13,315 nt of DNA, from positions 1 to 13,315 of the forward strand of contig JAFGPU010000193.1 in assembly GCA_016936035.1 (NCBI GenBank). The letters are read 5' to 3'. Below are positions 247 through 11,258 of the stretch, one piece after another (the stretch's first letter is position 1; each line of letters begins with the position of its first letter). The DNA comes from Acidimicrobiales bacterium. Lineage in GTDB: Bacteria; Actinomycetota; Acidimicrobiia; Acidimicrobiales; VFJN01. A program made the position numbers and the translations under genes. The notes beneath the pieces were generated by a model, which saw only the letters and a list, made by a program, of their open reading frames with translations, made no database searches and had not been told where the DNA came from.

Positions 247-252
247 ACCGTA
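247..252 (-). promoter_or_regulatory. Putative leaderless -10 element of the M1 peptidase gene
   Basis: TACGGT on the minus strand sits 7 nt before the GTG start. No Shine-Dalgarno sequence fits in between and no clear -35 is seen. The transcript probably begins at or next to the start codon. Confidence 0.5.
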
Positions 253-322
253 CCCACGAGCTGCGCCCGTGTCCGCGTGTGTTCGCTGACGGTCCGGCTG
301 AAATCGTCGAGCCGGCCTCGGC

Positions 323-328
323 TAGCCT
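323..328 (+). promoter_or_regulatory. Putative leaderless -10 element of the PfkB kinase gene
   Basis: TAGCCT lies 9 nt before the ATG at 338, with no ribosome binding site between. It follows the same TA-SSS-T pattern as the other genes here. It shares the 98-bp divergent gap with the M1 peptidase promoter. Confidence 0.5.
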
Positions 329-337
329 CGCCCGGAT

Positions 338-1318
338 ATGACTGCAGACGCCACGCTCGATGTGGTCGGCATCGGCAATGCGCTGGTCGACGTGCTCTCC
401 CACGAGACCGACGAGTTCGTCGCCGCGCAGGGGCTCGTGAAGAGCGCCATGACCCTGATCGAGCCCGACCGCGCCGAGCAGCTGTACCAGGCCATGGGCC
501 CGGGCATCGAGATGTCCGGTGGCTCGGCGGCCAACACCATCGCCGGGGTGGCGAGCTTCGGGGCGCGGGCCGCCTACATGGGCCGGGTCTACGACGACCA
601 GCTCGGTGCCGTGTTCGCCCACGATCTGCGGGCCCAGGGGGTCACGTTCGACAACAAGCCGGCGAGCGACGGGCCGTCGACCGGCCGGTGCCTCATCGTG
701 GTCACGCCCGACGCCCACCGCACGATGAACACGTGCCTCGGCGCGTCGGCGCTGTTCGGCCCGGACGACGTCGATCCCGACCTGGTCCGCTCCGCGCAGG
801 TCACGTTCCTCGAGGGCTACCTGTTCGACCGGCCCGAGTCGAAGGAGGCCTACTGGGTGGCCTCGAAGTACGCCCGGGACGCCGGCCGCAAGGTGGCCCT
901 CACGCTGTCCGACCTGTTCTGCGTCGAGCGGCACCACGACGACTTCGTCCCGCTCGTGCGCGAGCGCGTCGACATCCTGTTCGCCAACGAGGCCGAGGCC
1001 TGCGCGCTGTGGGGGTGCGACGAGGTGGGGGCGGCGGTCGAGCGCGCCCGGGCAGAGGTGGCGGTCGCCTGCATCACGCTCTCGGAGAAGGGCTCGATCG
1101 TGGTCGCCGGCGCCGAGACCCACGAGATCCCCGCCCGGCCGGTCGACGTGGTCGACACCACCGGCGCCGGCGATCTCTACGCGTCCGGCTTCCTGTACGG
1201 CTACACCAGCGGCCTGCCGCTGGCGCGGTGCGGCGAGCTGGGCACGCTGGCGGCCGCCGAGGTGATCAGCCACATCGGCGCCCGCCCGGACGTGCCGCTG
1301 TCGACGCTGCTGTCCTGA
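338..1318 (+). CDS. PfkB-family carbohydrate/adenosine kinase
   Basis: A complete 326-aa ribokinase-fold kinase that would phosphorylate a sugar or nucleoside hydroxyl with ATP in the cytoplasm. Near the N-terminus, VGIGNALVDVL (residues 10-20) and the glycine-rich GGSAANT (61-67) form the substrate pocket. NEAE at 217-220 fits the NxxE Mg/phosphate motif. DTTGAGDLYASGFL starts at 273 and is PfkB signature 2, with Asp279 as the expected catalytic base and GAG as the anion hole. Length is normal for the family. The opening resembles the adenosine-kinase-type branch of the family more than fructokinases, but the substrate cannot be fixed from sequence alone. The ATG at 338 is supported by the start of homology and by TAGCCT 9 nt upstream. 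The gene stands alone, convergent with the PPOX gene 15 bp downstream. Confidence 0.9.
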   Translation: MTADATLDVVGIGNALVDVLSHETDEFVAAQGLVKSAMTLIEPDRAEQLYQAMGPGIEMSGGSAANTIAGVASFGARAAYMGRVYDDQLGAVFAHDLRAQGVTFDNKPASDGPSTGRCLIVVTPDAHRTMNTCLGASALFGPDDVDPDLVRSAQVTFLEGYLFDRPESKEAYWVASKYARDAGRKVALTLSDLFCVERHHDDFVPLVRERVDILFANEAEACALWGCDEVGAAVERARAEVAVACITLSEKGSIVVAGAETHEIPARPVDVVDTTGAGDLYASGFLYGYTSGLPLARCGELGTLAAAEVISHIGARPDVPLSTLLS

Positions 1319-1324
1319 GCCGCG

Positions 1325-1343
1325 CGCCCGTCGTCAGCGGGCG
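1325..1343. terminator. Small hairpin between convergent kinase and PPOX genes
   Basis: CGCCCG (1325-1330) and CGGGCG (1338-1343) form a 6-bp GC stem with a 7-nt loop in the 15-bp gap, running into the PPOX stop codon. It could act in both directions. There is no T-run on either side, so this is a weak call. Confidence 0.35.
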
Positions 1344-1720
1344 TACTGGCGGGACGGGGCCACCTTCACGATGACCCGCTCCGACTGGATCGGGTTGCCG
1401 TAGTCGTTGCCGGTGTACTTCTGCGAGAGCTGGTCGATGTGGGCGCGGGCCTCGGGGCCCGTGACCGTCTCGACCACCTCGCCGCGCACCTCGGCGTACA
1501 CGTAGGGGTTGGCGGCGTCGATGATGGTCACCGTCACCCGGGGGTCGCGGCTGAGGTTGCGGTACTTCTGGCGGTGCACCTCGGTGTTGAGCAGCAGGTG
1601 CTCACCGTCGGCGTCGATCCACAGCGGTGTCGTCTGCGGTGTGCCGTCGGGCATGAGCGTGGTGACCGCGGCGAAGTTCCTGCCCTGCGTGGCCAGATGT
1701 CGGATCTTCTCGTCGAGCAT
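1334..1720 (-). CDS. PPOX-class F420/flavin-dependent oxidoreductase
   Basis: A 128-aa split-barrel protein of the pyridoxamine-5'-phosphate-oxidase-like superfamily, closest in appearance to the Rv1155-like F420-binding group. Supporting segments are FAAVTTLMPDGTPQTTPLWI (16-35), the basic stretch VHRQKYRNLSRDPRVTVTII (48-67), where cofactor phosphate binding is usual, and NPYVYAEVRGEV (71-82). Such proteins bind coenzyme F420 or a flavin and reduce small electrophilic substrates as dimers; the real substrate is unknown. The ATG at 1718-1720 is chosen because homology starts there and TACGCT lies 7 nt upstream. It follows the VOC gene, whose TGA ends 5 bp before the ATG, so it is last in the AraC-VOC-PPOX run but may also have its own internal promoter. 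Confidence 0.85.
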   Translation of the reverse strand: MLDEKIRHLATQGRNFAAVTTLMPDGTPQTTPLWIDADGEHLLLNTEVHRQKYRNLSRDPRVTVTIIDAANPYVYAEVRGEVVETVTGPEARAHIDQLSQKYTGNDYGNPIQSERVIVKVAPSRQYAR

Positions 1721-1725
1721 GCGGG

Positions 1726-2205
1726 TCAGCGTACGGACTCCGGCGCTCCGCCGGAACCGCTCGACCCCGACGCGTCGGGCCCGAACTCGCCGCCGTCGAA
1801 GGGCCTCGGCTCGACGAGCACGAGCCAGTTGCCGGAGTTGTCCCGGATGACGGCCTCGACGCCGTACGGGCGGTCGGCGGGCTCCTGGATGGACTCGACG
1901 CCCTTGGCGGTCAGCTCGTCGTAGGTCTTGCGGCAGTCGTCGGTGGCCAGTCCGACGGCGCCGAGCGAGCCCTTGCCCAGCATGCGGCGGAACGCGGCGG
2001 CGTCCTCGTCGTCGAGCGGCGGTCCGGGCTTCATGAGCGTGAGCTCCAGCTCCGGGTGGTCGGGGTGGGCGACCGACACCCAGCGGTAGCCGTCGCCCAT
2101 GGTGATGTCGGTGTGCTCGACGAAGCCGAGCTTGTCGACGTAGAAGGCCTTGGCCTCGTCCTGGTCGGTGACCCATACGGTGACGAGTGAAACGTTGGTG
2201 ATCAT
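1726..2205 (-). CDS. VOC (glyoxalase/bleomycin-resistance fold) family protein
   Basis: A 159-aa single-chain VOC protein with two beta-alpha-beta-beta-beta modules. The first runs from SLVTVWVTDQDEAKAFYVDK (6-25) through GYRWVSVAHPDHPELELTLM (39-58). The second runs from LGAVGLATDDCRKTYDELTA (81-100) to VIRDNSGNWLVLVEP (119-133). Acidic residues in ELELTLM and VLVEP occupy the usual metal-ligand strands, but the enzymatic or sequestering role cannot be assigned. Residues 134-159 are a Gly/Ser-rich disordered tail. The gene lies 17 bp after the AraC gene and 5 bp before the PPOX gene. AraC-VOC pairs are common in actinobacteria, which suggests the regulator acts on this gene. The ATG at 2203-2205 has TACGGT 7 nt upstream. 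Confidence 0.88.
   Translation of the reverse strand: MITNVSLVTVWVTDQDEAKAFYVDKLGFVEHTDITMGDGYRWVSVAHPDHPELELTLMKPGPPLDDEDAAAFRRMLGKGSLGAVGLATDDCRKTYDELTAKGVESIQEPADRPYGVEAVIRDNSGNWLVLVEPRPFDGGEFGPDASGSSGSGGAPESVR
1728..1733 (-). promoter_or_regulatory. Putative internal leaderless -10 element of the PPOX gene
   Basis: TACGCT on the minus strand is 7 nt before the PPOX ATG and shares a base with the TGA stop of the VOC gene (1726-1728). It would allow PPOX expression independent of the two genes upstream. Confidence 0.45.
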
Positions 2206-2212
2206 GGCCGGC

Positions 2213-2218
2213 ACCGTA
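2213..2218 (-). promoter_or_regulatory. Putative leaderless -10 element of the VOC gene
   Basis: TACGGT on the minus strand lies 7 nt before the VOC ATG, inside the 17-bp gap after the AraC gene. No Shine-Dalgarno sequence is present. The geometry is identical to the M1 peptidase element at 247-252. Confidence 0.5.
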
Positions 2219-2222
2219 CGGA

Positions 2223-2669
2223 TCACCCGGGCTGGTCGCTTCTCCCAGATTGCTCTCCCGCCGTCGTCCCGCCGGGCCACCGGTCGACGCCCCGCATGAA
2301 CAGGAAGCACCCGGGGATGCGGGGGCCGCCCCGGGCGACCCACCGGTCGCGGTACGCGGTCGGGGACTCGCCCACCAGCTCCGTGAAGCGCGACGAGAAC
2401 GAGCCGAGGCTGGAGAAGCCGACCATCATGCACACCTCGGTCACGGTCAGGTTGGCCGACCGCAGCAGGTCCTGGGCGCGCTCGATGCGGCGCCGCGTGA
2501 GGTAGCGCATCGGCGTCTCGCCGTAGGTGTCGGCGAAGCAGCGGCTGAAGTGGTACTTCGACACGTTGGCAGCGGCGGCCAGCGAGCCGAGGTCGAGGGG
2601 GTCGGCGTACCGCCGGTCGGCCAGGTCGCGGGCCCGGCGCAGGTGGGGGAGCAGCGCGGCAGGTGACAC
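2223..2669 (-). CDS. AraC-family transcriptional regulator (DNA-binding domain only)
   Basis: About 148 aa, almost all of it an AraC/XylS double helix-turn-helix. The first HTH covers DPLDLGSLAAAANVSKYHFSR (23-43) and continues to GETPMRYLTRRRIERAQDLL (50-69). The second covers LTVTEVCMMVGFSSLGSFSS (74-93), with the classic RFTELVGESPTAYR ending at 107. Full AraC proteins are about 300 aa with a ligand domain; here there is none, and only a 40-residue tail follows, so any signal is sensed elsewhere or by that tail. The GTG at 2667-2669 is chosen because homology begins just after it; the frame stays open upstream to about 2846 but would run through the dyad-rich region. It probably regulates the VOC and PPOX genes that follow. 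An imperfect dyad upstream (2705-2738) is a candidate operator. Confidence 0.88.
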   Translation of the reverse strand: MSPAALLPHLRRARDLADRRYADPLDLGSLAAAANVSKYHFSRCFADTYGETPMRYLTRRRIERAQDLLRSANLTVTEVCMMVGFSSLGSFSSRFTELVGESPTAYRDRWVARGGPRIPGCFLFMRGVDRWPGGTTAGEQSGRSDQPG

Positions 2670-2704
2670 ACCCGCAGTGTGCCAGCCCCGGTGGCGGGCC
2701 GATG

Positions 2705-2738
2705 GTTTCCTCTCGCAACTTTCGGAGCGAGGTGAAAC
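2705..2738. promoter_or_regulatory. Imperfect dyad upstream of the AraC gene, candidate operator
   Basis: The 12-nt arms GTTTCCTCTCGC (2705-2716) and GCGAGGTGAAAC (2727-2738) match in 10 of 12 positions around a 10-nt centre that is AT-richer than its surroundings. It ends 36 bp before the GTG start, a sensible place for an autoregulatory site. A binding role is inferred only. Confidence 0.4.
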
Positions 2739-2766
2739 GAGAGGGTGAGGGGCGCCTCGGACCGGA

Positions 2767-2805
2767 CGTGTCCGGCGGTGCCGGTGGCCACCACCGCCGG
2801 ACACG
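2767..2805. repeat. Perfect 14-bp inverted repeat
   Basis: CGTGTCCGGCGGTG (2767-2780) is exactly complementary to 2792-2805 around an 11-nt centre that contains GGTGGCCACC, itself a palindrome overlapping the right arm. It lies between the SnoaL terminator hairpin and the AraC gene. It may be a second terminator stem or a protein site. Confidence 0.6.
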
Positions 2806-2819
2806 CGGGCCTGTCCTCG

Positions 2820-2860
2820 GATCGTTCCGGCTCGTGCCCTGGGCACGAGCCGGAACGATC
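2820..2860 (-). terminator. Perfect 20-bp inverted repeat, probable terminator of the SnoaL gene
   Basis: The arm GATCGTTCCGGCTCGTGCCC (2820-2839) is perfectly complementary to 2841-2860 across a single centre base, so a 19-bp stem with a 3-nt loop is possible. It begins 10 bp after the SnoaL stop codon. No T-run follows on the minus strand, but high-GC actinobacteria often use stems without one. It should also insulate the AraC gene. Confidence 0.65.
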
Positions 2861-2870
2861 GGCCCGGGAT

Positions 2871-3332
2871 CTACGGCGTGGTGGGCCAGACCTGCCACAC
2901 CGGGGTGGTCTCGACGCTGGCCAGTCGCCAGCCGGCGGGCGTCCGGCGCGCCGTGAAGCGGTACACCTCGCCGAGCTGGCGCCGCGGCGCCGGCAGGCCG
3001 GCGCCGCGGGCGAACGTGACGACCAGGTTGGCCCGCACGGTGGCGGTGTCGCCGTCGAGGTCGACGACGACGTCGGTGATGACGTGCTGGATGCGGTCGT
3101 CGGCCGAGTGGTTGCGTGCGGCCTGGGCGACGACGGCGTCGAGCCCGTCGGCGCGGCCTCCGGGGGTGCTGGCGGTGGCGTCGCCGGTGAAGATCGTGCG
3201 GAGGCCGTCGAAGCGTCCCTCGTCCATGCAGGCGCCGAGGCGGTGCACGAGGGCGGTGATCGCGTCGCGGTCGACGAGGTCGCCGAGCTGGTGGCGGGCG
3301 TCGGGGCCCGGTCGGGTTTCGGAGATGGTCAT
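2871..3332 (-). CDS. SnoaL/NTF2-like family protein
   Basis: A 153-aa protein with the features of the SnoaL-like (NTF2-fold) superfamily: an opening helix pair LVDRDAITALVHRLGACMDE (19-38), then DGLRTIFTGDATAST (42-56), HVITDVVVDLDGDTATVRAN (83-102), and closing strands GEVYRFTARRTPAGWRLASV (121-140). Members form small cone-shaped barrels and act as isomerases, cyclases, dehydratases or ligand binders, so the reaction is undefined. The ATG at 3332 has a good Shine-Dalgarno sequence (GAGGAG at 3338-3343, 5-nt spacing), unlike most genes here. It is divergent from the MarR gene, and its predicted promoter is covered by the GTTGG-N5-CCAAC sites. This suggests it is the structural target of MarR repression, perhaps handling the small molecule that MarR senses. 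Confidence 0.85.
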   Translation of the reverse strand: MTISETRPGPDARHQLGDLVDRDAITALVHRLGACMDEGRFDGLRTIFTGDATASTPGGRADGLDAVVAQAARNHSADDRIQHVITDVVVDLDGDTATVRANLVVTFARGAGLPAPRRQLGEVYRFTARRTPAGWRLASVETTPVWQVWPTTP

Positions 3333-3350
3333 GGTCTCTCCTCGCTAGGC

Positions 3351-3365
3351 GTTGGGAATCCCAAC
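3351..3365. promoter_or_regulatory. MarR operator O1
   Basis: GTTGGGAATCCCAAC is a 15-nt palindrome with 7-bp arms around one centre base. It directly abuts O2 and falls in the expected 5' untranslated region of the SnoaL gene. Confidence 0.7.
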
Positions 3366-3380
3366 GTTGGGGAGACCAAC
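3366..3380. promoter_or_regulatory. MarR operator O2
   Basis: GTTGGGGAGACCAAC keeps the 5-bp arms GTTGG/CCAAC of O1 with no gap between the two sites. It overlaps the predicted -10 of the SnoaL gene. Confidence 0.65.
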
Positions 3381-3407
3381 GATAACGCCCGTTGGTAGCA
3401 CCAACAA
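3379..3407 (-). promoter_or_regulatory. Predicted promoter of the SnoaL gene
   Basis: On the minus strand TTGTTG (3402-3407), a 17-bp spacer and TATCGT (3379-3384) form a sigma-70-like promoter. O2 touches its -10 and O3 covers the spacer and part of the -35, so binding of MarR should block it. Confidence 0.5.
3391..3405. promoter_or_regulatory. MarR operator O3
   Basis: GTTGGTAGCACCAAC has 6-bp arms around a 3-nt centre. It is 10 bp from O2 and 8 bp before the MarR -10 element, which fits autorepression. Confidence 0.7.
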
Positions 3408-3412
3408 CCCGT

Positions 3413-3418
3413 TAGCGT
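3413..3418 (+). promoter_or_regulatory. Putative leaderless -10 element of the MarR gene
   Basis: TAGCGT lies 8 nt before the ATG at 3427. There is no Shine-Dalgarno sequence. O3 covers the place where a -35 would be. Confidence 0.5.
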
Positions 3419-3426
3419 GAGACGTC

Positions 3427-3873
3427 ATGGAGAGCGCATCCGCCCCGGCCCGGTTGCGGGCGTTGCCGAGCTGGTTGCTCAACCAGTCCGCGCGGCCGGC
3501 CCAGCACCTCGTCAGCGAGGGTCTGCGGGCCGTCGGCGCGCAGCGCTACCACTACTCCGTGCTCGCCGCGCTCGACGAGTTCGGGCCCGCGAGCCAGGCA
3601 GCGCTCGGGCGCCGCAGCGGCATCGACCGCAGCGACATGGTCGCGGTCGTCAACGATCTGACTGCTCAGGGGTCGGTCAGCCGGCAGCCGGATGCGACGG
3701 ACCGGCGGCGCAACGTCGTCACCATCACTCCCGCAGGTCACCGGCACCTGCAGGCGCTCGACGACATCGTGAACGGGGCCCAGCGCGACCTGCTCGCGCC
3801 GCTGTCGACCGACGAGCGAGCCGAGCTGGTGCGCCTCCTCGGCAAGATCGTCGACCACCACGCCGGTGGATGA
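3427..3873 (+). CDS. MarR-family transcriptional regulator
   Basis: A 148-aa winged-helix dimeric repressor. The N-terminal helix (8-36) for dimerisation is followed by YHYSVLAALDEFGPASQAAL (41-60), the recognition region GRRSGIDRSDMVAVVNDLTAQG (61-82), and the wing with the family hallmark DATDRRRNVVTITPAG (89-104). C-terminal helices (105-145) complete the dimer. Length is standard. Such proteins sense small phenolic or other ligands, or oxidation; there is no cysteine here, so thiol sensing is unlikely. The gene is divergent from the SnoaL gene, and three copies of GTTGG-N5-CCAAC in the shared gap are its likely operators, giving repression of both genes. The ATG at 3427 has TAGCGT 8 nt upstream. 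Confidence 0.92.
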   Translation: MESASAPARLRALPSWLLNQSARPAQHLVSEGLRAVGAQRYHYSVLAALDEFGPASQAALGRRSGIDRSDMVAVVNDLTAQGSVSRQPDATDRRRNVVTITPAGHRHLQALDDIVNGAQRDLLAPLSTDERAELVRLLGKIVDHHAGG

Positions 3874-3890
3874 GGGGCGGTCGTCGCCCC
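3874..3890 (+). terminator. Hairpin directly after the MarR stop codon
   Basis: GGGGCG (3874-3879) pairs with CGCCCC (3885-3890) with a 5-nt loop, immediately after TGA. A second small stem, GTACGG/CCGTAC (3913-3927), follows in the same 93-bp convergent gap. Neither has a T-run. Confidence 0.45.
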
Positions 3891-3966
3891 CCGGTGACCG
3901 CGGCGTGTCACGGTACGGGTGCCGTACGGTCGGCGGGGCCGCGGATCCAGGAGTCCTCCTGACCGC

Positions 3967-4662
3967 TCAGGGCACCGGGACCGTCTCGGGCGCTCGGCCC
4001 GGGGGTTCCACGCGCAGCTCGCCGCGGGCGGTGGGGGACATCTCCGTGCCGGGGGCGGGCGGTGCCGCGAGGGCGGTGTCGTCGAGTCGCCGGACGTCGC
4101 CGTCGTGGCCGAACTGCACGGTGCGGACGGTGCCGTCGGGGCCGACGGCGACGTAGCGGCTGGTGCCGTCCGGCTGGGGCACGCTCAGGCACGTGGCGCC
4201 GGCGATCTCGTCCGCGCTCAGCAGGTGGGGGACCGGTTCGCACAGCACGGTGCCCGACTCCCACGTCCCGTCGTCGGGGACGGTCGCAGACGGATCGCCG
4301 GCCGCGGCGCGGGCCCGGGCGTCCTCGGCGGCCTCCGCGGAGCGAGCGTCGGCCAGCACCCGGCCGGTGTCGACACCCGGTTCCGGCCGTGCCGGTTCGC
4401 CGGCACCCTGTTCGAGCCGGTCGAGCGCATCCTCGAGCATCTCGACCTTCGGGCTGTCCGCCGGGACGCCGCTCGCGACCATGGCATCGATCTCGTCTCG
4501 GAGCTGCTGCTCCATCTCGACGGGCGGCGGCTCGCTCAGTGCCGCGCTCGCGGCCGACGAGGCGGCCACGGCGACCAGCACCAGGGCCGCGAGCAGGACC
4601 CGCCGGCGTGTCGACCGGCGCGGGCCCGGCAACGTGGGTGTCGGAGTGTCGTCGGTGGTCAT
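3967..4662 (-). CDS. Membrane-anchored or secreted protein of unknown function
   Basis: A 231-aa protein I do not recognise. The short cytoplasmic start has a basic patch, PRRSTRRR (14-21), then a hydrophobic segment LLAALVLVAVAASSAASAAL (23-42) that is either an uncleaved anchor or a signal peptide. Residues 49-121 are rich in Glu, Ala, Arg and Leu, and the parts around 50-85 and 101-121 could be helical or coiled. The C-terminal half looks like a small beta domain, with GTVLCEPVPHLL and GATCLSVPQPDGTSRYVAVGPDGTVR; its two cysteines (141 and 158) could form one disulfide outside the cell. A Pro-rich tail follows. The ATG at 4660-4662 is 2 nt after the stop of the 316-aa exported protein, so the two are almost certainly co-translated and may work together. 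Confidence 0.75.
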   Translation of the reverse strand: MTTDDTPTPTLPGPRRSTRRRVLLAALVLVAVAASSAASAALSEPPPVEMEQQLRDEIDAMVASGVPADSPKVEMLEDALDRLEQGAGEPARPEPGVDTGRVLADARSAEAAEDARARAAAGDPSATVPDDGTWESGTVLCEPVPHLLSADEIAGATCLSVPQPDGTSRYVAVGPDGTVRTVQFGHDGDVRRLDDTALAAPPAPGTEMSPTARGELRVEPPGRAPETVPVP

Positions 4663-4664
4663 GA

Positions 4665-5615
4665 TCAGCTGTTCCAGTTCATGTCGGTCATGGTCGGGAC
4701 GTCGCCCTGCGCCGTGCGCGAGTCGCTGTTCAACCAGTTGCGGAGCTGGTCGTTGCCCTGGTGCGGCGTGTTGTCGACGCCCGCGCACCCGCCGACCTGC
4801 TGGCACGCGCCCCACTGGGTCATCGAGCCGTAGAAGTACATGCCGTCGCCCACCGCCGTCGTCGACCACAGGTCGATGAGCTGCCACTGGCGCGCCTGGT
4901 TGCCGCTGGTGGTGTAGATCTGGGGGATGGGCAGGGACGGGTCGTGCTCCCAGGCCAGGTGCCAGACCCGGTGCTGGTTCCAGCCGTTGTTGCAGGGCCC
5001 GTTGCTGGCCGAGGCGGTCGGGCAGCCGTCCGCCGACGCGTTGGCGAAGAGCAACCGCCGGCCCGACGTGGTGTCGTAGCCCCGCATCCACATCTCGGCC
5101 TTGCCGTACGTCGACCACGACGGCTCGAAGTCCCAGGCCGCGTAGATCTGGGCGTGGCCCGGGAAGTTGGCGTCGGCCCACGCCGCGACGTCCCGCACGC
5201 CCCGCGCCCACGCGGCGCCGTGGGCTCGCAGCCACGCGTCCGACCGCCCGTCGATGGCGCTGTTGCTGGTGCCTACGCCGATCAGCAACCGGTGGCTCGA
5301 GTTCTGCCGGCAGTAGGCGAAGCCGCGCACCACGCTCTTGATGCGCTCACCGATCTGGGAGACCGTGAGGTCCCGTGCGCCCCAGAGGGTCGCGCCGTAG
5401 CTGCCCCCCACTGTGGTGGGCGCACCGAAGAACAGCGTCAGCCGGCCGGACTTGTCGGCATTGAAGCATCCCAGCAGGGCGGCGTCGTTCACGCCGGCAC
5501 GGCCCATGTAGTAGCTCCGGGTCTCCGCGCTGGGCGGCTTGTGACACGAACCGGCGGCGGTGATCGTCAGCGCACAGAGCACTGCGGCGAGCCAGCGTGC
5601 TGGTCGCTTGGCCAT
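4665..5615 (-). CDS. Exported Cys-rich protein, possible lipoprotein, function unknown
   Basis: A 316-aa protein with a signal sequence (KRPARWLAAVLCALTITAAG, 3-22) and Cys24 in a lipobox-like AGSC, a loose match because the -3 residue is Ala. Six further cysteines (50, 102, 198, 208, 271, 277) could form three disulfides. The alternation of strands and helices (RLLIGVGTSNSA 109-120, AQIYAAWDFEPSWS 155-168, RRLLFANASADG 186-197, LPIPQIYTTSGNQ 228-240) resembles a TIM-barrel glycoside-hydrolase-like protein. WDFEP, with Asp162 and Glu164 at a strand end, and WEHD (222-225) are candidate active-site acidics; this is inference from pattern, not recognised homology. The Trp-rich C-terminal part includes TQWGACQQVGGC. 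The start has GAGG 5 nt upstream and a plausible promoter at 5655-5683. It forms an operon with the 231-aa protein. Confidence 0.8.
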   Translation of the reverse strand: MAKRPARWLAAVLCALTITAAGSCHKPPSAETRSYYMGRAGVNDAALLGCFNADKSGRLTLFFGAPTTVGGSYGATLWGARDLTVSQIGERIKSVVRGFAYCRQNSSHRLLIGVGTSNSAIDGRSDAWLRAHGAAWARGVRDVAAWADANFPGHAQIYAAWDFEPSWSTYGKAEMWMRGYDTTSGRRLLFANASADGCPTASASNGPCNNGWNQHRVWHLAWEHDPSLPIPQIYTTSGNQARQWQLIDLWSTTAVGDGMYFYGSMTQWGACQQVGGCAGVDNTPHQGNDQLRNWLNSDSRTAQGDVPTMTDMNWNS

Positions 5616-5654
5616 GACGACCTCACAGGGGGAGAGGAGGACGTTGTCGGCAGA

Positions 5655-5683: not shown

Positions 5684-5709
5684 GCGCTGACCGCGAAGAG
5701 ACGACCGCG

Positions 5710-7731
5710 TCAGGTGGTCGACGCGCTCGCGATCACTTGGGGGACGAGCCAGTCGGCGACGAGCGGAGCCGCAGCCCACGAGTAGTGCACGCCGTCCCGC
5801 ATCCGGTCGCCGAACTCGCCTCCCGGCAGCTCCTCGGTCCACCGGTCGAGCTCGATGCGGTGGAAGCCCGGCCGGTCGCCGACCACCTCGGACACGATCT
5901 CGTTGAGCCGGTCGACGCGGTCCGGATCGTTCTCGCCCAGGTCCGACCAGGCGACGGTGGGGTCGTCGGGATCGTCGAGCCGCACGTGCGGGTGGGTCGG
6001 CCAGACGACCGGTGCGCCGGTCGCGGCGAGCAGGTCGGCGATCGCCGTGACTTCGCCGGTGAACCACCGGTCGAACACCGGGTCTCCCAGGTGGTACCAG
6101 TCGCCGGCGAACTCACGCTCGCCCAGCTCGAAGACCCCGGAGGTGAACACGATGACGTCGGGCTCGGCCCGGGCCAGGATGTCGGGCAGCTGGTCGTGCC
6201 AGCGGTTGCAGTCACCGGGCAGGCCCCACGGCCGGCCCCACACCCGCAACGCCGTCGCGGCGCCGCCGAGCGGGCACCCGAACGGCGTGTGGGCCTCGAC
6301 CGCCACCTGGTCGACCGGCTCGCGCTTGTTCCACGACGAGAAGGCCGGGCCGAGCGACCACGCCACCGAGTCGCCGATGAGCAGCACGTCGATCGGTTCG
6401 GCCACCGTGGCGTCGACCGTCCAGCCCATCGCCTGATCGCCCGGGCCGACACCGGCACGAGCCGGTGTGTGCACAGGCAGCACGGTGACCAGCAGCACCA
6501 CCGCACCGGCCGTCACGGCGAGCCCGGCGGCCAGCCGGGGTCGCGGCACCCGCACCCGGAACCGCACCGGCGATTCGATCACGGCGTACGACAGGGCGGC
6601 GACGGCCAGCGTGACGGTGACGCGGGCGACGAACAGGCGCACCGGATGGCCGATGCCGGTGCGTTCGGCGTCGAGCACCAGGAAGATCGGCCAGTGGTAC
6701 AGGTACGCCCCGTAGCTGACCTTCCCGATCGCCCGGAGGGGGCGGGCGCCGAGGACACGGGCGGCCGGTCCGCCGGTGGTGACCGCCAGGATGACCACCG
6801 CGGTCAACGTCGCGTTGACCGCCGTGCGGCCCCGGAACAGGTCTGCGGATGCCAGCGAGGTGGAGTGCCACAGCGCCAGCAGGCCGACGAGCGCTGCGGT
6901 CCCGGCGACCGCGAGGGTGCGGTGGGCCCACGGGCGGACCGGCGCCCCCGAGCGCTCCCGGTCCCGGGCGGCCACGAACCCGAAGGCGAGCACCACGCCC
7001 GCGAGCAACTCGCCCGCCCGGGTGAAGGTCGCGTAGTAGACGGCGCCGCTGTTGTCGCCCGAGCCGGACATCGCCCACGCAGCCGCGAACGATGCGAGTG
7101 CCACGCCCGCCCACCCGCCGGCCGCGACCGAGCGCCGGCCGCCGAGGAGGCGGGCCAGCGCCATGAGCCCGCCGAAGCCGAGCGGAAAGCCCAGGTAGAA
7201 CTGCTCCTCGATCGCGAGTGACCACGTGTGGGCCACCGGTGACGGGTCGGAGAACAGCAGGGCGTAGTCGCCCGATGCGGCGATGAACCGCCAGTTGGCC
7301 ACATACGCGAGCGCGGCCAGCAGGTCGCCGCGGAACGTCGTCGACGAGCCGATCTCGAGCGTCGCCTGCACCAGCGCGATTCCGGCGATCGTCGCCAGCG
7401 CCGCCGGAAGCAGGCGGCGGGCACGTCGCTCCCAGAACCGCCGCCACGACAGCCGTCCCGATGTGGACCACTCGCCCAGGGCCAGCACCGTGATGAGGAA
7501 CCCGGACAGGGTGAAGAAGCTCGACACTCCGAGGAACCCGCCGCTGGCCCAGTCGAAGCCCTGGTGGAAGGCGAGGACGGCCGCGAGCGCCAGCGCCCGC
7601 AACCCGTCGAGGCCCGGCACGTAGCCCAGTCGGGCACGGTCGGCGCCGGGTGTGCTGGATGCCGCGGGACGGTCGACGCCCGCAGCGCGCGCGTGATCGC
7701 CGGAGCGCATCGTGCCCGGTGCCGACGACAT
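5710..7731 (-). CDS. OafA-type membrane acyltransferase with C-terminal SGNH domain
   Basis: A 673-aa integral membrane protein predicted to O-acylate a cell-surface glycan. Residues 37-400 form the acyltransferase-3 domain of about ten membrane helices. It opens with YVPGLDGLRALALAAVLAFH, whose His56 is the conserved catalytic histidine, and contains FFTLSGFLIT (72-81), RFWERRARRLLP (98-109), HTWSLAIEEQFYLGFPL (168-184) with the conserved Glu175/176, and SYGAYLYHWPIFL (339-351). After a helix at 401-420 the extracytoplasmic SGNH domain has block-I GDSVAWSL (453-460; nucleophile Ser455) and block-V DGVHYS (646-651; Asp646, His649), so both active sites look intact. Residues 1-35 are a disordered cytoplasmic lead. 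The ATG at 7729-7731 follows a G-rich stretch. It lies 35 bp after the crotonase gene; a functional link to that gene is not evident. Confidence 0.93.
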   Translation of the reverse strand: MSSAPGTMRSGDHARAAGVDRPAASSTPGADRARLGYVPGLDGLRALALAAVLAFHQGFDWASGGFLGVSSFFTLSGFLITVLALGEWSTSGRLSWRRFWERRARRLLPAALATIAGIALVQATLEIGSSTTFRGDLLAALAYVANWRFIAASGDYALLFSDPSPVAHTWSLAIEEQFYLGFPLGFGGLMALARLLGGRRSVAAGGWAGVALASFAAAWAMSGSGDNSGAVYYATFTRAGELLAGVVLAFGFVAARDRERSGAPVRPWAHRTLAVAGTAALVGLLALWHSTSLASADLFRGRTAVNATLTAVVILAVTTGGPAARVLGARPLRAIGKVSYGAYLYHWPIFLVLDAERTGIGHPVRLFVARVTVTLAVAALSYAVIESPVRFRVRVPRPRLAAGLAVTAGAVVLLVTVLPVHTPARAGVGPGDQAMGWTVDATVAEPIDVLLIGDSVAWSLGPAFSSWNKREPVDQVAVEAHTPFGCPLGGAATALRVWGRPWGLPGDCNRWHDQLPDILARAEPDVIVFTSGVFELGEREFAGDWYHLGDPVFDRWFTGEVTAIADLLAATGAPVVWPTHPHVRLDDPDDPTVAWSDLGENDPDRVDRLNEIVSEVVGDRPGFHRIELDRWTEELPGGEFGDRMRDGVHYSWAAAPLVADWLVPQVIASASTT

Positions 7732-7766
7732 GCCGATCCCCCCGCCGTCCGACCTGCTCAGCTCGG

Positions 7767-8552
7767 TCAGACCTGTGAGCGGCCCCGCTCGGTCACCGCG
7801 GCCCGGCGGGCCCTGATGGCGTCGGGATCGAGCCCGCCGCCCTGCCAGTCGCGGGCGACGGTCGCCTCGAGCTGCCAGGCCTCGCCGGCGCTGACCAGGG
7901 CGCCGTCGGCGTAGGTGCGCAGGATGCGACGGACGGCGCGCTGGTCGTTGGACACGATGTCGGCAGCCAGTCGCCGGCAGTAGGGCAGCAGCTCGTCGTG
8001 GGGCACGACGTGGTTGACCAGGCCCCACGCCCGCGCGGTCTCGGCGTCGACGAAGTTGCCGGTGGCCGACATCTCGCGGGCACGCCGCACGCCGATGGCC
8101 TGCGGCAGCAGGACCGTCAGACCCCAGCCGGGCATGATGCCGACGCGGGCGTGGGTGTCGGCGAACGCCGCCCGCTCCGACGCGACGAGCAGGTCGCAGC
8201 GCAGCGCCAGCTCGAACCCACCGGTGATGGCCGCGCCGTTGACGGCGCCGATCACCGGCTTGCCGATGGGCGGGAACGGTCCCTGCTGCTGCGGCGACGA
8301 CGCCTCGACGGCCAGCGCCTCGATGGAGGCCCCGGTCGTGGACGCGAGCTCCTTGAGGTCGAGCCCGGCGCAGAAGGCGGGGTCGGCCCCCGTGAGGATC
8401 ACCACGTCGACGCTGTCGTCGCCGTCGAGATCGTGCATCGTGCGACGCAAGGCGCGTCGCAGCTCGCGGTCGAGCGCGTTGCGGGCCGCCGGACGGTCGA
8501 GGGTGACCGTCGCGACCCGGTCGGAGACGTCGAGGCCCAGCACGTCGGTCAT
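7767..8552 (-). CDS. Enoyl-CoA hydratase/isomerase (crotonase) family protein
   Basis: A 261-aa crotonase-fold protein acting on an acyl-CoA thioester in the cytoplasm. RVATVTLDRPAARNALDREL (12-31), the first oxyanion-hole segment AFCAGLDLKE (59-68) and the second, NGAAITGGFELAL (105-117), are standard. Glu114 in GGFELAL corresponds to the first catalytic glutamate of classical hydratases. The second glutamate position (the PE of the usual PEIxLG) is His134 in FADTHARVGIMPGWG, a variant I associate with EchA-type mycobacterial paralogues. The protein may therefore not be a simple 2-enoyl-CoA hydratase. The C-terminal helices are intact. The ATG at 8550-8552 has TAGCGT 7 nt upstream. It is divergent from the beta-propeller gene and precedes the acyltransferase. 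Confidence 0.9.
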   Translation of the reverse strand: MTDVLGLDVSDRVATVTLDRPAARNALDRELRRALRRTMHDLDGDDSVDVVILTGADPAFCAGLDLKELASTTGASIEALAVEASSPQQQGPFPPIGKPVIGAVNGAAITGGFELALRCDLLVASERAAFADTHARVGIMPGWGLTVLLPQAIGVRRAREMSATGNFVDAETARAWGLVNHVVPHDELLPYCRRLAADIVSNDQRAVRRILRTYADGALVSAGEAWQLEATVARDWQGGGLDPDAIRARRAAVTERGRSQV

Positions 8553-8559
8553 TGCGGCG

Positions 8560-8565
8560 ACGCTA
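8560..8565 (-). promoter_or_regulatory. Putative leaderless -10 element of the crotonase gene
   Basis: TAGCGT on the minus strand is 7 nt before the ATG in the 99-bp divergent gap. No Shine-Dalgarno sequence is present between them. Confidence 0.5.
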
Positions 8566-8651
8566 GTGGCGATCGTCGACGAGGGCCGAAGTCTGCCGCC
8601 CACCCGCGCAGTTCCACCATCGACCACACACATCGTGGCACGATCAACGCG

Positions 8652-9866
8652 ATGAGTGGAGTCAGGCTGGGGATCGTCGGGGCCGTGAGCGTCCTCGTCC
8701 TCGCTGGTGCGGTGTTCGTCGAGCGCTCCGGCGTCGAGGAGGGCGCCGAGGGGGCCGGCCAAGCCGGCAAGTCGCCGGCCGGCGCGGCACTGCCGACCCC
8801 CGGCGCCGGCTCGGCCACGACCACGACGCCACCGCCCCGACCGCCGTCGGCGGGGTTGCGGCTGGCCGAGCACCGCGTGATCACGGCCACCGCCGAGACC
8901 GGTCCGCTGTCGCCCAAGTCGATCGTCGCCTCGGGCACCGGCGTCGTCTACGCGCAGAACATGATCTACAACCACAGCGTCACCGCCTTCGACGCCGACG
9001 GCGACCACCTGGCGACCATCTCCGACGAGGTCGACCTGGCGTCGTTCGGCATCGACGACCACCCGCCCGGCACCGTCCGGGGCGGGCCGGTCGAGCTGGC
9101 GTTCTCGCCCGACCGCACCACCGCCTACGTGTCCAACTACTCGATGTACGGGCCCGGGTTCGCCAACCCGGGCGACGACGAGTGCTCGCCCGAGAGCGGG
9201 TTCGACAGCAGCTTCGTCTACCGCATCGACGTGGCCAGCCATGCGATCGACCAGGTCATCTCCGTCGGCTCCGTGCCCAAGTACGTGGCGACGACGCCCG
9301 ACGGCCGTCACGTGCTGGTGACCAACTGGTGCACCTACGACCTGAGCGTCATCGACGCCGCCACCGGGCGCGAGGTGCGACGCGTGCCGCTGGGCCCCTA
9401 CCCGCGGGGCATCGCGGTGTCCCCCGACGGGCGCACCGCCTACATCGCCATCATGGGCGGCACCGACATCGTCACGGTCGACCTCGGGTCGTTCGCCGTC
9501 GGCCGCTTCGAGGGCGTGGGCGGCGGGCCCCGCCATGTGGTGATCGGTCCCGACGGCGCCTACCTGTACGTGACGCTCAACCGCGACGGACGCATCGCCA
9601 AGGTCGACACCCGCACCGGCGAGGTGGTCGCCACGGTGGCGACCGGCAGTGCGCCCCGCAGCATGGACATCGCCGCAGACGGCCAGTCGCTCTACGTCGT
9701 CAACTACGGGTCGGCCACCGTGTCGAAGGTGACGACGGCCGACATGGTGGAGGTGCAGGAGGTGTCCACGGGCGAGCACCCCATCGGCGTCACCTACGAT
9801 CCGCTGACGGGGCGGGTGTGGGTCGCCTGCTACTCGGGGCAGATCCACATCTTCGACGACCGGTGA
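8652..9866 (+). CDS. Exported YncE-like beta-propeller protein
   Basis: A 404-aa protein with an N-terminal membrane segment (RLGIVGAVSVLVLAGAVFVE, 5-24), a Gly/Ala/Thr/Pro-rich linker (28-68) and a seven-blade-like propeller of YVTN/YncE type (about 69-404). Blade repeats carry the usual pattern of strand, SPDG turn and Y-V-x-N: LAFSPDRTTAYVSN (149-162), VATTPDGRHVLVTN (212-225), IAVSPDGRTAYIA (254-266), VVIGPDGAYLYVT (296-308) and DIAADGQSLYVVN (339-351). It most likely sits outside the membrane as a scaffold or ligand-binding module; the partner is unknown. An insert with Cys178 in the second or third blade and Cys227 could form a disulfide. The ATG at 8652 is chosen because the signal anchor starts directly after it; no clear -10 or ribosome binding site is seen. 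It is convergent with the 200-aa gene. Confidence 0.88.
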   Translation: MSGVRLGIVGAVSVLVLAGAVFVERSGVEEGAEGAGQAGKSPAGAALPTPGAGSATTTTPPPRPPSAGLRLAEHRVITATAETGPLSPKSIVASGTGVVYAQNMIYNHSVTAFDADGDHLATISDEVDLASFGIDDHPPGTVRGGPVELAFSPDRTTAYVSNYSMYGPGFANPGDDECSPESGFDSSFVYRIDVASHAIDQVISVGSVPKYVATTPDGRHVLVTNWCTYDLSVIDAATGREVRRVPLGPYPRGIAVSPDGRTAYIAIMGGTDIVTVDLGSFAVGRFEGVGGGPRHVVIGPDGAYLYVTLNRDGRIAKVDTRTGEVVATVATGSAPRSMDIAADGQSLYVVNYGSATVSKVTTADMVEVQEVSTGEHPIGVTYDPLTGRVWVACYSGQIHIFDDR

Positions 9867-9871
9867 CGCCG

Positions 9872-9887
9872 GACGGCTCCCGCCGTC
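9872..9887. terminator. Hairpin between convergent genes
   Basis: GACGGC (9872-9877) and GCCGTC (9882-9887) form a 6-bp stem with a CCC-containing 4-nt loop in the 19-bp gap, reaching into the stop codon of the opposing gene. It is short and has no T-run. Confidence 0.4.
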
Positions 9888-10488
9888 AGTGGCCCTCCTC
9901 GACCGGCGGCAGGAACGGCAGGGTGAGATCGCCCAGCCTGACCAGGGTGGCGGCGATCCAGCCGCCCATGGCGCTGAGGTGGTCGTCGAGGATGGTGCCG
10001 TCCTCGAGCGTGGCCTCGTCGAGCTCGTAGCTGCCCTCGTAGGACACCTCGATGGCGAACTCGCTCTCGTTCAGGTCGGCGGAGCACACGGTCTCGATGG
10101 TGGGGCCCGACCGTTCCAGCTGCTCCGAGCCGATGGCGGCGCTCGCCTCGGGAAGCACCGCCAGCACCACCCGGGGGTCGGGTGCCTCGGCCAGGCGTTG
10201 CACCCGCATGACCAGCTCGATCTCGATGCGGGGCGGGTCGCTGAAGGGCTCGCCGATGTACCAGGACCGGTAGGCGGTCTGCGCCCACGTGGGCCAGTCG
10301 AGGGTGAGATCGGCCTGCACCCGGGGCGGCAGCCCCTCGCCGGGCAGCCCGTAGGAGGTCTCCCACGTGACGTCGCCGAGCAGCACGTCGACCTGGAAAC
10401 GCTCCTCGAACGCCTGGCGCTCGAGGAAGGCGCGCTCGAGCGAGTCGCGGAGCGCTCCGATGGCATCGGTGAAGACGTGGTCGAGCAT
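9886..10488 (-). CDS. Hypothetical protein, 200 aa
   Basis: I do not recognise this family. The protein is soluble, acidic, without signal peptide or membrane segment. It begins with an amphipathic helix (about 1-33, rich in Arg/Glu), followed by alternating strands such as FQVDVLLGDVTWETSY (31-46), VQADLTLDWPTW (57-68) and RIEIELVMRVQRL (87-99), then EFAIEVSYEGSYEL (143-156), which suggests an all-beta core of antiparallel strands. A single cysteine (135) is present. The ATG at 10486-10488 is 12 bp after the TAG of the 247-aa glyoxalase-like gene, and TAGCCT, which overlaps that TAG, lies 9 nt upstream of it. Codon use matches its neighbours, so it is probably a real gene and last in the run. 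Confidence 0.75.
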   Translation of the reverse strand: MLDHVFTDAIGALRDSLERAFLERQAFEERFQVDVLLGDVTWETSYGLPGEGLPPRVQADLTLDWPTWAQTAYRSWYIGEPFSDPPRIEIELVMRVQRLAEAPDPRVVLAVLPEASAAIGSEQLERSGPTIETVCSADLNESEFAIEVSYEGSYELDEATLEDGTILDDHLSAMGGWIAATLVRLGDLTLPFLPPVEEGH

Positions 10489-10497
10489 GGCGTCGGC

Positions 10498-10503
10498 AGG
10501 CTA
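10498..10503 (-). promoter_or_regulatory. Putative leaderless -10 element of the 200-aa gene
   Basis: TAGCCT on the minus strand is 9 nt before the ATG. Its first three bases are the TAG stop codon (10501-10503) of the preceding gene. Confidence 0.45.
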
Positions 10504-11244
10504 GCGGGGTGCGCCGTCGGTGCCGCCCGGGGCGGCCGCCCCGCCGGCCGACATGAACGCCACCGGCACAGACACCGCGTCGGGCGGCGGCTCGGCGCCG
10601 GCGGTGCGGTCCGCCCGCAACGTGGCGATGCGCCGCCCCGGCTGGACGGCGGGCTTGGGCGCGCCGACGCGGCCGGCGAGCAGCGCGGCGGTCGCGTCCA
10701 GGTCGGCCACGGTGAACGCCAGGCCCCAGAAGGTGGCCGGTCCGTCGCCGGACGGTACGGCCGGCCCCACGACCTCGAGGATCACCTCGCCCAGCCGGAA
10801 GAACCGCTGGAGCCGGCCGCGCCCGGCCTCGCGCGTGCGCCGGGCCGGCAGCCCGATGCTCTCGATGGCGGCCGAGGTGCGGTCGAGGTCGGGGGTGAAG
10901 ACCACGAGGTGGTCGAGCTGGGTCGCCCCGTTGGGGTGCGGTGGTGCCGCGCCCCCAGCGTCGCCCGGCCCCGCCGTGGCCGCCGCTGCCGTCGGCAACC
11001 CGTCGAGGCCGTCGGGGCGGTCGGGGCGGTCGGGGCGGTCGCCCGGCAGCTCGGCGCCGGCCAGCGACCAGGCGACGATGCCGCGCCCCCGCTCGTCGCT
11101 GGCGCCGGTCAGCCCGATGCGCACCGCACCGACGCGGCACGTGCCGTCGCCGTCGACGGCGAACCCGATCGACCGCCAGGCCGCGGGGTCGTCGCCGACG
11201 GTGACCTCCGCGATGGTGACCGGTGCCCTGGCGTGCTCATCCAT
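10501..11244 (-). CDS. Glyoxalase-like (VOC) domain protein with extra N-terminal domain
   Basis: A 247-aa protein. Residues 107-232 form a glyoxalase-like domain: TQLDHLVVFTPDLDRTSAAIESIG (108-131), LQRFFRLGEVILEVVGP (145-161), WGLAFTVADLDATAALLAGRVG (173-194) and a last strand VSVPVAFMS (224-232). His112 and Glu157 are at the positions of the usual metal ligands, so a metal site is possible. Residues 1-66 are a separate part I do not recognise (VRIGLTGASDERGRGIVAWSL); it resembles nothing firm. The two are joined by a low-complexity Asp/Arg/Pro then Ala/Gly linker (68-106) that contains a 9-bp tandem repeat. The ATG at 11242-11244 has TAGCGT 8 nt upstream. It lies 32 bp after the queuosine-salvage gene; the substrate is unknown. 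Confidence 0.83.
   Translation of the reverse strand: MDEHARAPVTIAEVTVGDDPAAWRSIGFAVDGDGTCRVGAVRIGLTGASDERGRGIVAWSLAGAELPGDRPDRPDRPDGLDGLPTAAAATAGPGDAGGAAPPHPNGATQLDHLVVFTPDLDRTSAAIESIGLPARRTREAGRGRLQRFFRLGEVILEVVGPAVPSGDGPATFWGLAFTVADLDATAALLAGRVGAPKPAVQPGRRIATLRADRTAGAEPPPDAVSVPVAFMSAGGAAAPGGTDGAPR
11011..11040. repeat. 9-bp tandem repeat in the VOC-gene linker
   Basis: Three exact copies of GTCGGGGCG plus GTC, preceded by one degenerate copy. On the minus strand it encodes repeated Asp-Arg-Pro in the linker. The unit is a multiple of three, so slippage would change linker length without a frameshift. Confidence 0.8.
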
Positions 11245-11252
11245 GGTCGCGG

Positions 11253-11258
11253 ACGCTA
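11253..11258 (-). promoter_or_regulatory. Putative leaderless -10 element of the 247-aa VOC gene
   Basis: TAGCGT on the minus strand is 8 nt before the ATG, in the 32-bp gap after the queuosine-salvage gene. No Shine-Dalgarno sequence is present. Confidence 0.5.

What the first reader, a model, noticed from the sequence alone, without database searches (positions are those of the whole stretch)
247..11258. Eight start codons carry TA[C/G]3T exactly 7-9 nt upstream and no ribosome binding site: likely leaderless transcription
Positions 247-252, 323-328, 1728-1733, 2213-2218, 3413-3418, 8560-8565, 10498-10503 and 11253-11258 all read TACGGT, TAGCCT, TACGCT or TAGCGT on the coding strand, 7, 9, 7, 7, 8, 7, 9 and 8 nt before the start. 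A/T-containing hexamers are rare in DNA this GC-rich, so this repeated spacing is unlikely by chance. Leaderless TANNNT promoters are known in mycobacteria and Deinococcus. What is notable is that most genes here fit, with a strict G/C middle and no visible -35. The SnoaL gene, with a good Shine-Dalgarno sequence and a conventional promoter, and the exported-protein operon, also with its own Shine-Dalgarno sequence, are the contrast.
Basis: partly seen in the sequence, partly recalled or inferred. Interest (0 to 1): 0.7.

Follow-up and report, generated by a model that had tools for sequence, protein, structure and literature searches.

The report
Leaderless gene promoters in an actinobacterium
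Eight genes in this stretch have their promoter box so close to the start codon that the message probably begins at the start codon itself, without a ribosome-binding leader; this is real and conserved, but it is the arrangement already known from other actinobacteria.

Summary
Chance is excluded: 3,000 shuffles never gave more than one of 15 genes. It holds outside the window: in 80 other contigs of this genome a signal-blind gene finder puts TANNNT 6-9 nt before 46 of 319 starts, 2.9 expected; four relatives give 12-22%. No -35 consensus is seen and none of the 46 has a Shine-Dalgarno. Relatives of seven window genes keep the box in 9 of 28 to 6 of 8 cases; for gene B it moves with the start codon. 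Best reading: -10 boxes of leaderless genes, as mapped in M. tuberculosis and predicted for Actinobacteria in 2011. Two details fail: the strict G/C middle is no rule (20 of 46), and the window is richer than the genome (about a quarter of genes). Extras: an operator-like motif 19-20 nt before some boxes in AraC-VOC gene pairs, and divergent leaderless genes 24-32 bp apart in five relatives. Transcription starts were not measured.

The parts
247..252 (-). -10 box TACGGT, 7 nt before GTG at 239 of gene A (Peptidase_M1_N, aminopeptidase type; 3-239, cut by the contig end)
   Evidence: box 6-10 nt before a candidate start in 15 of 22 related loci
323..328 (+). -10 box TAGCCT, 9 nt before ATG at 338 of gene B (PfkB-family kinase, 338-1318)
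   Evidence: box in 21 of 28 related loci, control hexamers in at most 4 of 28
1728..1733 (-). -10 box TACGCT, 7 nt before ATG at 1720 of gene C (PNPOx_N, 1334-1720); its last T is the first base of gene D's stop codon TGA
   Evidence: box in 6 of 8 relatives read
2213..2218 (-). -10 box TACGGT, 7 nt before ATG at 2205 of gene D (VOC/glyoxalase superfamily, 1726-2205), in the 17-nt gap after gene E
   Evidence: box in 7 of 16 best matches in other genomes
2238..2255 (-). Operator-like motif GAGCAATCTGGGAGAAGC inside the 3' end of gene E, 19 nt before the -10 box of gene D
   Evidence: in related loci the -10 box stands 19 or 20 nt after GAGAAGC
2223..2669 (-). Gene E, single-domain AraC-type regulator (HTH_18, HTH_AraC), proposed regulator of gene D; weak -10-like CACACT 6 nt before GTG 2669
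3413..3418 (+). -10 box TAGCGT, 8 nt before ATG at 3427 of gene G (MarR-type regulator, 3427-3873)
   Evidence: the one relative read (G002, L401) has TACCTT 6 nt before ATG
3351..3405 (.). Three inverted repeats GTTGGN5CCAAC (3351-3365, 3366-3380, 3391-3405), proposed MarR operators between the divergent SnoaL gene F (2871-3332, with Shine-Dalgarno) and leaderless gene G
   Evidence: one exact and one near copy upstream of the relative in G002 (read by eye)
8560..8565 (-). -10 box TAGCGT, 7 nt before ATG at 8552 of gene K (enoyl-CoA hydratase family, 7767-8552)
   Evidence: box in 9 of 28 best matches in other genomes, many of them distant members of the family
10498..10503 (-). -10 box TAGCCT, 9 nt before ATG at 10488 of gene M (200 aa, no Pfam match, 9886-10488); its TAG is the stop codon of gene N
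   Evidence: box at 6-10 nt in 15 of 20 relatives read, also in G001 and G002, which have no match to gene N
11253..11258 (-). -10 box TAGCGT, 8 nt before ATG at 11244 of gene N (Glyoxalase_3 match below its cut-off, 10501-11244)
   Evidence: box in 13 of 19 relatives, control hexamers in at most 4 of 19
2871..3332 (-). Gene F, SnoaL-like, contrast case: Shine-Dalgarno words GAGGA/AGGAG/GGAGA 4-6 nt before ATG, no TANNNT within 12 nt
4665..5615 (-). Gene I, no Pfam match, contrast case: GAGG 5 nt before ATG 5615, no TANNNT within 12 nt

Best explanation
The hexamers are -10 elements (TANNNT) of the housekeeping sigma factor. They stand 7-9 nt before the start codon, so RNA polymerase begins transcription at, or within about three nt of, the first base of the AUG/GUG. 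The mRNA is leaderless, and the ribosome takes it up by its 5'-terminal start codon without a Shine-Dalgarno. There is no -35 consensus; specificity lies in the -10 box, helped at some promoters by regulators (AraC-type at gene D, MarR-type at gene G). Shown: motif, spacing, enrichment, lack of Shine-Dalgarno and of a -35 consensus, conservation. Inferred: sigma factor, transcription start, mode of translation, action of the regulators.
For: Positions and chance. Gene-call-free test: ATG lies exactly 7 nt after 20 of 210 TANNNT sites against about 2 expected; four control hexamers show no excess. Signal-blind starts: 46 of 319 at 6-9 nt, expected 2.9. A model free to use spacers 3-13 learns T.80 A.93 N N N T.95 with spacers 6-9 at 0.15, 0.45, 0.23, 0.11 and puts 27% of 343 genes (15 of them from the window) in this class; 58 of 328 real upstreams pass LLR>3 against 2.1 shuffled, 43 of 319 against 1.7 with signal-blind starts. 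In this genome TANNNT and Shine-Dalgarno never occur together: 0 of 46 against 86 of 274. Box genes are those likely to need a promoter: 25 of 114 with a divergent upstream neighbour, 0 of 38 overlapping tandem genes. Related loci keep the box for A, B, C, D, K, M and N. At an operator-like motif the box sits at one distance whether or not a start codon follows.
Against: No transcription start was measured. 188 of 320 genes have neither a strict TANNNT box nor a regex Shine-Dalgarno, so the classes are incomplete. In three relatives one box gene also has a Shine-Dalgarno (1 of 30, 1 of 27, 1 of 13). Spacers of 9 nt (B, M) leave room for a leader of a few nt. Conservation is partial for K (9 of 28) and D (7 of 16). 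The loci used as an outside control, mostly Alphaproteobacteria, also show a small peak (24 of 331 at 6-9 nt), so the signal is not special to this group. In the 76 boxes of this genome and G001 one upstream position, -17, reaches 0.18 bit; it falls to 0.05 in the 139 boxes of five genomes.
Confidence: 0.92

Rival explanations
1. The hexamers are chance or a by-product of base composition.
Against: Shuffles, control hexamers, the independent contigs and the related loci all speak against it.
Confidence: 0.01
2. In the tandem genes (C, D, M, N) the TA comes from stop codons or coding constraint of the gene upstream, not from a promoter.
For: The TAG of TAGCCT before M is the stop codon of N, and the last T of the box before C belongs to the stop codon TGA of D (sequence).
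Against: M keeps the box in G001 and G002, which have no match to N; C keeps it in 6 of 8 relatives read; overlapping tandem genes have the box in 0 of 38 cases.
Confidence: 0.04
3. The boxes are -10 elements, but transcription starts a few nt away, giving very short leaders (1-5 nt) or starts just inside the gene, with the real start codon downstream.
For: Spacers vary from 6 to 9 nt; starts in a high-GC genome are uncertain, and A, B and D have alternative starts.
Against: For B the box moves with the start codon in relatives whose N-termini differ in length; the spacer distribution is cut off sharply below 6 nt and above 9 nt.
Confidence: 0.2
4. The hexamer is a translation signal in the mRNA (a non-Shine-Dalgarno ribosome site), not a promoter.
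For: Its distance from the start is like that of a ribosome-binding site.
Against: Middle positions carry almost no information while T, A and T are nearly invariant, as in -10 boxes; at the operator-like motif the box keeps its distance to the motif in 16 of 16 places, and only 7 of the 16 have a start codon at 6-9 nt.
Confidence: 0.02

Closest known systems
Leaderless TANNNT promoters of Mycobacterium tuberculosis (Cortes et al. 2013, PMC3898074; highlights and passages seen)
   Same: TANNNT -10 motif 7-12 bp upstream of 73% of primary transcription starts, no conserved -35 motif, a quarter of genes leaderless, no base preference in the middle NNN.
   Different: There shown by mapping of transcription starts; here inferred from sequence. 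Pooled over five genomes the middle here has a mild G/C excess (72 of 139 against 38% expected).
TA-led genes of Actinobacteria and Deinococcus-Thermus (Zheng et al. 2011, PMC3160421; abstract and passages seen)
   Same: TANNNT about 12 bp before the start, counted from the first T; more than 20% of genes in Actinobacteria and Deinococcus-Thermus.
   Different: Its main text does not contain a word beginning Acidimicrobi. Added here: signal-blind starts, conservation in related loci, and a genome that I place near Acidimicrobiia.
Bidirectional promoters with reciprocal -10 elements (Middlemiss et al. 2023, PMC10268837; passages seen)
   Same: In one relative (L170) the -10 boxes of two divergent genes overlap by 2 bp; the start codons are 24 bp apart.
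   Different: In the window the two boxes are 70 bp apart; in four relatives they are 4-7 bp apart without overlap.

Membership tests
Leaderless TANNNT genes of Actinobacteria | TANNNT hexamer at a fixed short distance before the start codon | tested here: met
   8 of 15 window genes; 46 of 319 sampled genes at 6-9 nt, expected 2.9
Leaderless TANNNT genes of Actinobacteria | No Shine-Dalgarno in the same genes | tested here: met
   0 of 46 box genes against 86 of 274 others; 0 of 8 in the window; in relatives 1 of 30, 1 of 27, 0 of 23 and 1 of 13 box genes have one
Leaderless TANNNT genes of Actinobacteria | No conserved -35 element | tested here: met
   75 aligned boxes: no upstream position above 0.13 bit (T at -24); TTGACA with at most one mismatch at spacers 15-19 in 1 of 75. 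In another set of 76, position -17 has 0.18 bit, 0.05 when pooled to 139
Leaderless TANNNT genes of Actinobacteria | Transcript 5' end at the start codon | not testable with these tools
   No RNA data
Leaderless TANNNT genes of Actinobacteria | Translation without Shine-Dalgarno pairing | not testable with these tools
   No proteome or reporter data
Bidirectional promoter with shared -10 | -10 elements of opposite strands overlap reciprocally | tested here: not met
   Window genes A and B: boxes 70 bp apart; one of the 15 loci with both boxes, L170, overlaps by 2 bp
MarA-like class II AraC activation (gene E on gene D) | Single-domain AraC protein of MarA size (size recalled) | tested here: met
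   HTH_18 at residues 31-110 of the 149-residue translation scanned, no other kind of domain
MarA-like class II AraC activation (gene E on gene D) | Conserved site at fixed phase next to the -35 region of the target promoter | tested here: met
   30 motif places read: 16 have TANNNT within 60 nt, all 20 or 21 nt after the 14-mer; 14 have none
MarA-like class II AraC activation (gene E on gene D) | Binding of the site by the protein and activation | not testable with these tools
   No binding or expression data

The most novel reading that the evidence does not exclude
AraC-type regulators encoded directly before VOC genes read an operator that lies inside the 3' end of their own gene, 19-20 nt before the TANNNT box of the next gene. 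The activator stands in for the missing -35 element and switches on a leaderless mRNA. The same motif, set the same way before other VOC-like genes, some of them with leaders, forms an undescribed regulon across Actinomycetota. In the same order, some divergent leaderless genes hold two complete promoters in 24-32 bp, so that each polymerase sits on the other gene's start.
Probability: 0.45. Interest if true: 0.5.

Novelty: new member of a known kind. Interest (0 to 1): 0.33.

Why it matters
It extends sequence evidence for leaderless genes to an order that I place in or near Acidimicrobiia. My searches for leaderless genes there gave two papers, neither of them, as far as I saw, a study of that class (one seen by passages, the other in the listing only), and none for Ilumatobacter. 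It offers a practical rule for correcting start codons in such genomes: a TANNNT box 6-9 nt before a start marks it. The fixed distance from an operator-like motif to the box, and the very short divergent regions, are natural test cases for how a polymerase works without a -35 element.

Tried and rejected
Outside control (67 loci that I did not class as actinobacterial by title, mostly Alphaproteobacteria, 438,581 bases, 58% GC): not clean, since it also shows TANNNT 6-9 nt before 24 of 331 starts. The three-class model's Shine-Dalgarno class swallowed nearly everything that was not TA and is not used as a Shine-Dalgarno count. Strict G/C middle as a rule: rejected. A -35 element: sought as TTGACA, TTGAC, TTGCC and GTTGAC with at most one mismatch, nothing beyond a faint T excess at -24/-23. 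Two leaderless genes in one divergent pair: 19 of 145 pairs against 16.2 expected, so no association. The short pattern (7-mer plus box plus ATG; 85 of 198 genomes) is not specific, because its reversed-pattern control columns are well filled too (I did not sum them); only the longer motif is used (82 places against 10 for the reversed control, counted by hand from the listing). The window's own motif copy does not fit the pattern; this genome's match there is another gene pair, on contig C76. Paper search for motif strings: 10 papers, none about such a promoter as far as titles and abstract beginnings tell; none was opened. Paper searches (7 papers listed; 0 papers) on AraC and glyoxalase/VOC regulation gave nothing of use.
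Full report
WHAT WAS CHECKED. The window is the whole of contig C145 of a genome of 3.20 Mb in 555 contigs, 67.9% complete. The best named match to its PfkB-type kinase gene is contig PKRH01000001.1, labelled Thermoanaerobacterales bacterium ZC4RG19 (84% identity). That contig has the same length, 65,521, as G001:C96 of the same-genus genome, and the same upstream sequence of gene B (L002 and L163). Further matches carry titles of Actinomycetota, Microthrixaceae and Acidimicrobiia, besides many Alphaproteobacteria. I take the organism to be an actinobacterium in or near Acidimicrobiia; this is an inference from names and GC content, not a classification.

THE OBSERVATION. All eight hexamers are at the stated places with the stated spacers. 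The genes are: A Peptidase_M1_N, B PfkB kinase, C PNPOx type, D VOC/glyoxalase superfamily, G MarR type, K enoyl-CoA hydratase type, M without a Pfam match, N with a Glyoxalase_3 match below its cut-off. None of the eight has a Shine-Dalgarno-like word; F (SnoaL) and I have one. Shuffling the 15 upstream sequences 3,000 times gave at most one gene with TASSST at 7-9 nt and at most two with TANNNT at 6-9 nt; eight are observed (one of the 15, gene E, was entered with a start three bases off).

IS IT A PROPERTY OF THE GENOME? I read 80 of the 555 contigs (407,034 bases, 21,359 masked; the window is not among them). Without any gene call, an ATG stands exactly 7 nt after 20 of 210 TANNNT sites, about ten times background, while ATSSST, TTSSSA, TSSSTA and TSSSAT show no excess at 6-10 nt. 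A gene finder written for this purpose, which uses codon statistics and start-codon type but no upstream signal, gives 328 starts in these contigs. TANNNT lies 6, 7, 8, 9 nt before 8, 17, 13, 8 of them and before none at 4, 5, 10 or 11 nt. With 60 clean upstream bases required the count is 46 of 319, expected 2.9. A mixture model free to place the motif at any spacer from 3 to 13 nt settled on T.80 A.93 NNN T.95 at 6-9 nt and gave 27% of 343 genes (window included) to it. At LLR above 3, 58 of 328 real upstreams pass against 2.1 shuffled; with signal-blind starts 43 of 319 against 1.7. So 14% is the strict floor and about a quarter the likely share. Four relatives give 30 of 244 (G001), 27 of 121 (G008), 23 of 121 (G012) and 13 of 92 (G037).

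WHAT KIND OF ELEMENT. In this genome no gene with the box has a Shine-Dalgarno (0 of 46; 86 of the other 274 do; 188 of 320 have neither by these strict rules). In the relatives 1 of 30, 1 of 27, 0 of 23 and 1 of 13 box genes have one. The box is found before genes with a divergent upstream neighbour (25 of 114), before tandem genes with a gap of 40 nt or more (13 of 101) or of 0-39 nt (7 of 48), before 1 of 19 without a called upstream gene, and before no overlapping tandem gene (0 of 38). Seventy-five boxes aligned on themselves show no -35 consensus, only a faint T excess at -24/-23; pooled over five genomes, 139 boxes, T is 0.21 and 0.19 there against 0.12. In the 76 boxes of this genome and G001 position -17 has 0.18 bit, which falls to 0.05 in the pool. 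The G/C-only middle of the window's boxes (8 of 8) is not general: 20 of 46 in this genome, where composition predicts 39%. Pooled over five genomes it is 72 of 139 against 38% expected, a mild excess. The window is richer in such genes than the sample: 9 of 15 against 80 of 328 by the model (p 0.005), 5 of 15 against 46 of 320 by blind starts (p 0.06).

CONSERVATION. In other genomes of the order, a TANNNT box stands 6-10 nt before a candidate start in 15 of 22 loci for A, in 21 of 28 for B, 13 of 19 for N, 7 of 16 for D, 9 of 28 for K and 15 of 20 for M, and at 6 or 7 nt in 6 of 8 for C. The one relative of the MarR gene that I read has it too. Seven control hexamers reach at most 4 of 28 (B) and 4 of 19 (N), six for A at most 2 of 22; C and MarR had no such control. 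What was read is a part: best match per genome, 29 of 38 other genomes with a match for B, 20 of 20 for N, 17 of 17 for D, 29 of 40 for K, 20 of 24 for M, 8 of 14 for C, and for A the 22 of 29 B loci in which it was found. Dropped before counting: for B, N and K one locus each whose alignment began more than 15 residues into the query, for D one locus without an alignment at the cut-off used. Gene B is the clearest case: the N-terminus differs in length among relatives and the box moves with the start codon. M keeps the box in G001 and G002, which have no match to the upstream gene N, so the TAG shared with N's stop codon is not its cause. K keeps it in G001 and G002 and mostly lacks it in more distant matches.

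MECHANISM. The spacing puts the first base of the start codon where transcription would begin after a -10 box. Cortes et al. place TANNNT 7-12 bp upstream of 73% of primary starts in M. tuberculosis, find no -35 motif, and report a quarter of genes leaderless (PMC3898074, highlights and passages). Zheng et al. predicted the same signal about 12 bp before the start in bacteria, with more than 20% of genes leaderless in Actinobacteria and Deinococcus-Thermus (PMC3160421, abstract and passages). The StartLink paper repeats that Actinobacteria have a significant number of leaderless genes (PMC9581028, passages). The finding is therefore a new member of a known kind. What is shown here is motif, spacing, enrichment, exclusivity and conservation; the start of transcription and the mode of translation are inferred.

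TWO THINGS FOUND ON THE WAY. First, gene D follows an AraC-type gene, E. In many related loci a motif (GAGCAGGATCGGAGAAGC or GGTCAGGAATCGAGAAGC and variants) lies in or after the 3' end of an AraC-like gene, 19-20 nt before the TANNNT box of a VOC-like gene (of these neighbours only D and E of the window were scanned against Pfam, the others I judged by eye). The 14-mer CAGGAWYSGAGAAG occurs in 59 of 198 genomes drawn from the phylum, 82 places against 10 for the reversed pattern (hand counts from the listing). Of the 30 places read, 16 have TANNNT within 60 nt and all 16 have it 20 or 21 nt after the 14-mer; 14 have none. Seven of the 16 have a start codon 6-9 nt after the box and nine do not, so the box belongs to the motif, not to the start codon. 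This supports the promoter reading independently. I propose that E-type regulators bind the motif and replace the -35 contact, as MarA-like class II activators do (recalled, not tested). Second, A and B are divergent in many relatives; of the 23 loci (window included) where both genes were found, 15 have both boxes, and these are separated by -2, 4, 5, 6, 7, 23, 23, 28, 54, 66, 70 (the window), 76, 99, 770 and 773 bp. At the short end, in five genomes, 24-32 bp between candidate start codons hold two promoters. Overlapping -10 boxes are known from bidirectional promoters of Salmonella and E. coli (PMC10268837, passages). One search for divergent transcription together with leaderless genes gave 114 papers, of which 12 were listed; none of the 12 seemed by title and abstract beginning to treat such pairs. 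The search for AraC with VOC families gave no paper.

VERDICT. Interest is modest because the arrangement is established for actinobacteria; the operator-like motif and the compact divergent pairs are the parts worth a follow-up.

Noticed in passing
2238-2255 (-), gene E 2223-2669, gene D 1726-2205; loci L313-L342: Operator-like motif at a fixed 19-20 nt before TANNNT in AraC-VOC gene pairs and before other VOC-like genes across Actinomycetota; it includes the codon AGA, which I take to be rare at this GC content (not counted).
   Followed up: partly
3351-3405: Three GTTGGN5CCAAC inverted repeats between the divergent SnoaL and MarR genes; the third ends 7 nt before the marR box. One exact and one near copy precede the relative in G002 (L401).
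   Followed up: partly
L170, L185, L186, L176, L174 (divergent A/B relatives): Candidate start codons of two divergent, probably leaderless genes only 24-32 bp apart, with -10 boxes overlapping by 2 bp or 4-7 bp apart.
   Followed up: partly
67 loci among L009-L081, mostly Alphaproteobacteria: A smaller TANNNT peak at 6-7 nt before starts (21 of 331 genes), suggesting some leaderless genes there too.
   Followed up: no
7767-8552 and 9886-11244, with relatives: Genes N, M and K are neighbours in G003, G004, G005 and G006, with B some kb away in G003 and G004. K, directly after M, has no box in these four genomes but keeps one after M in G008 (L352).
   Followed up: partly
8652-9866: Gene L, with beta-propeller family matches, shows neither a TANNNT box nor a Shine-Dalgarno at its ATG 8652; its start or promoter is unexplained.
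   Followed up: no
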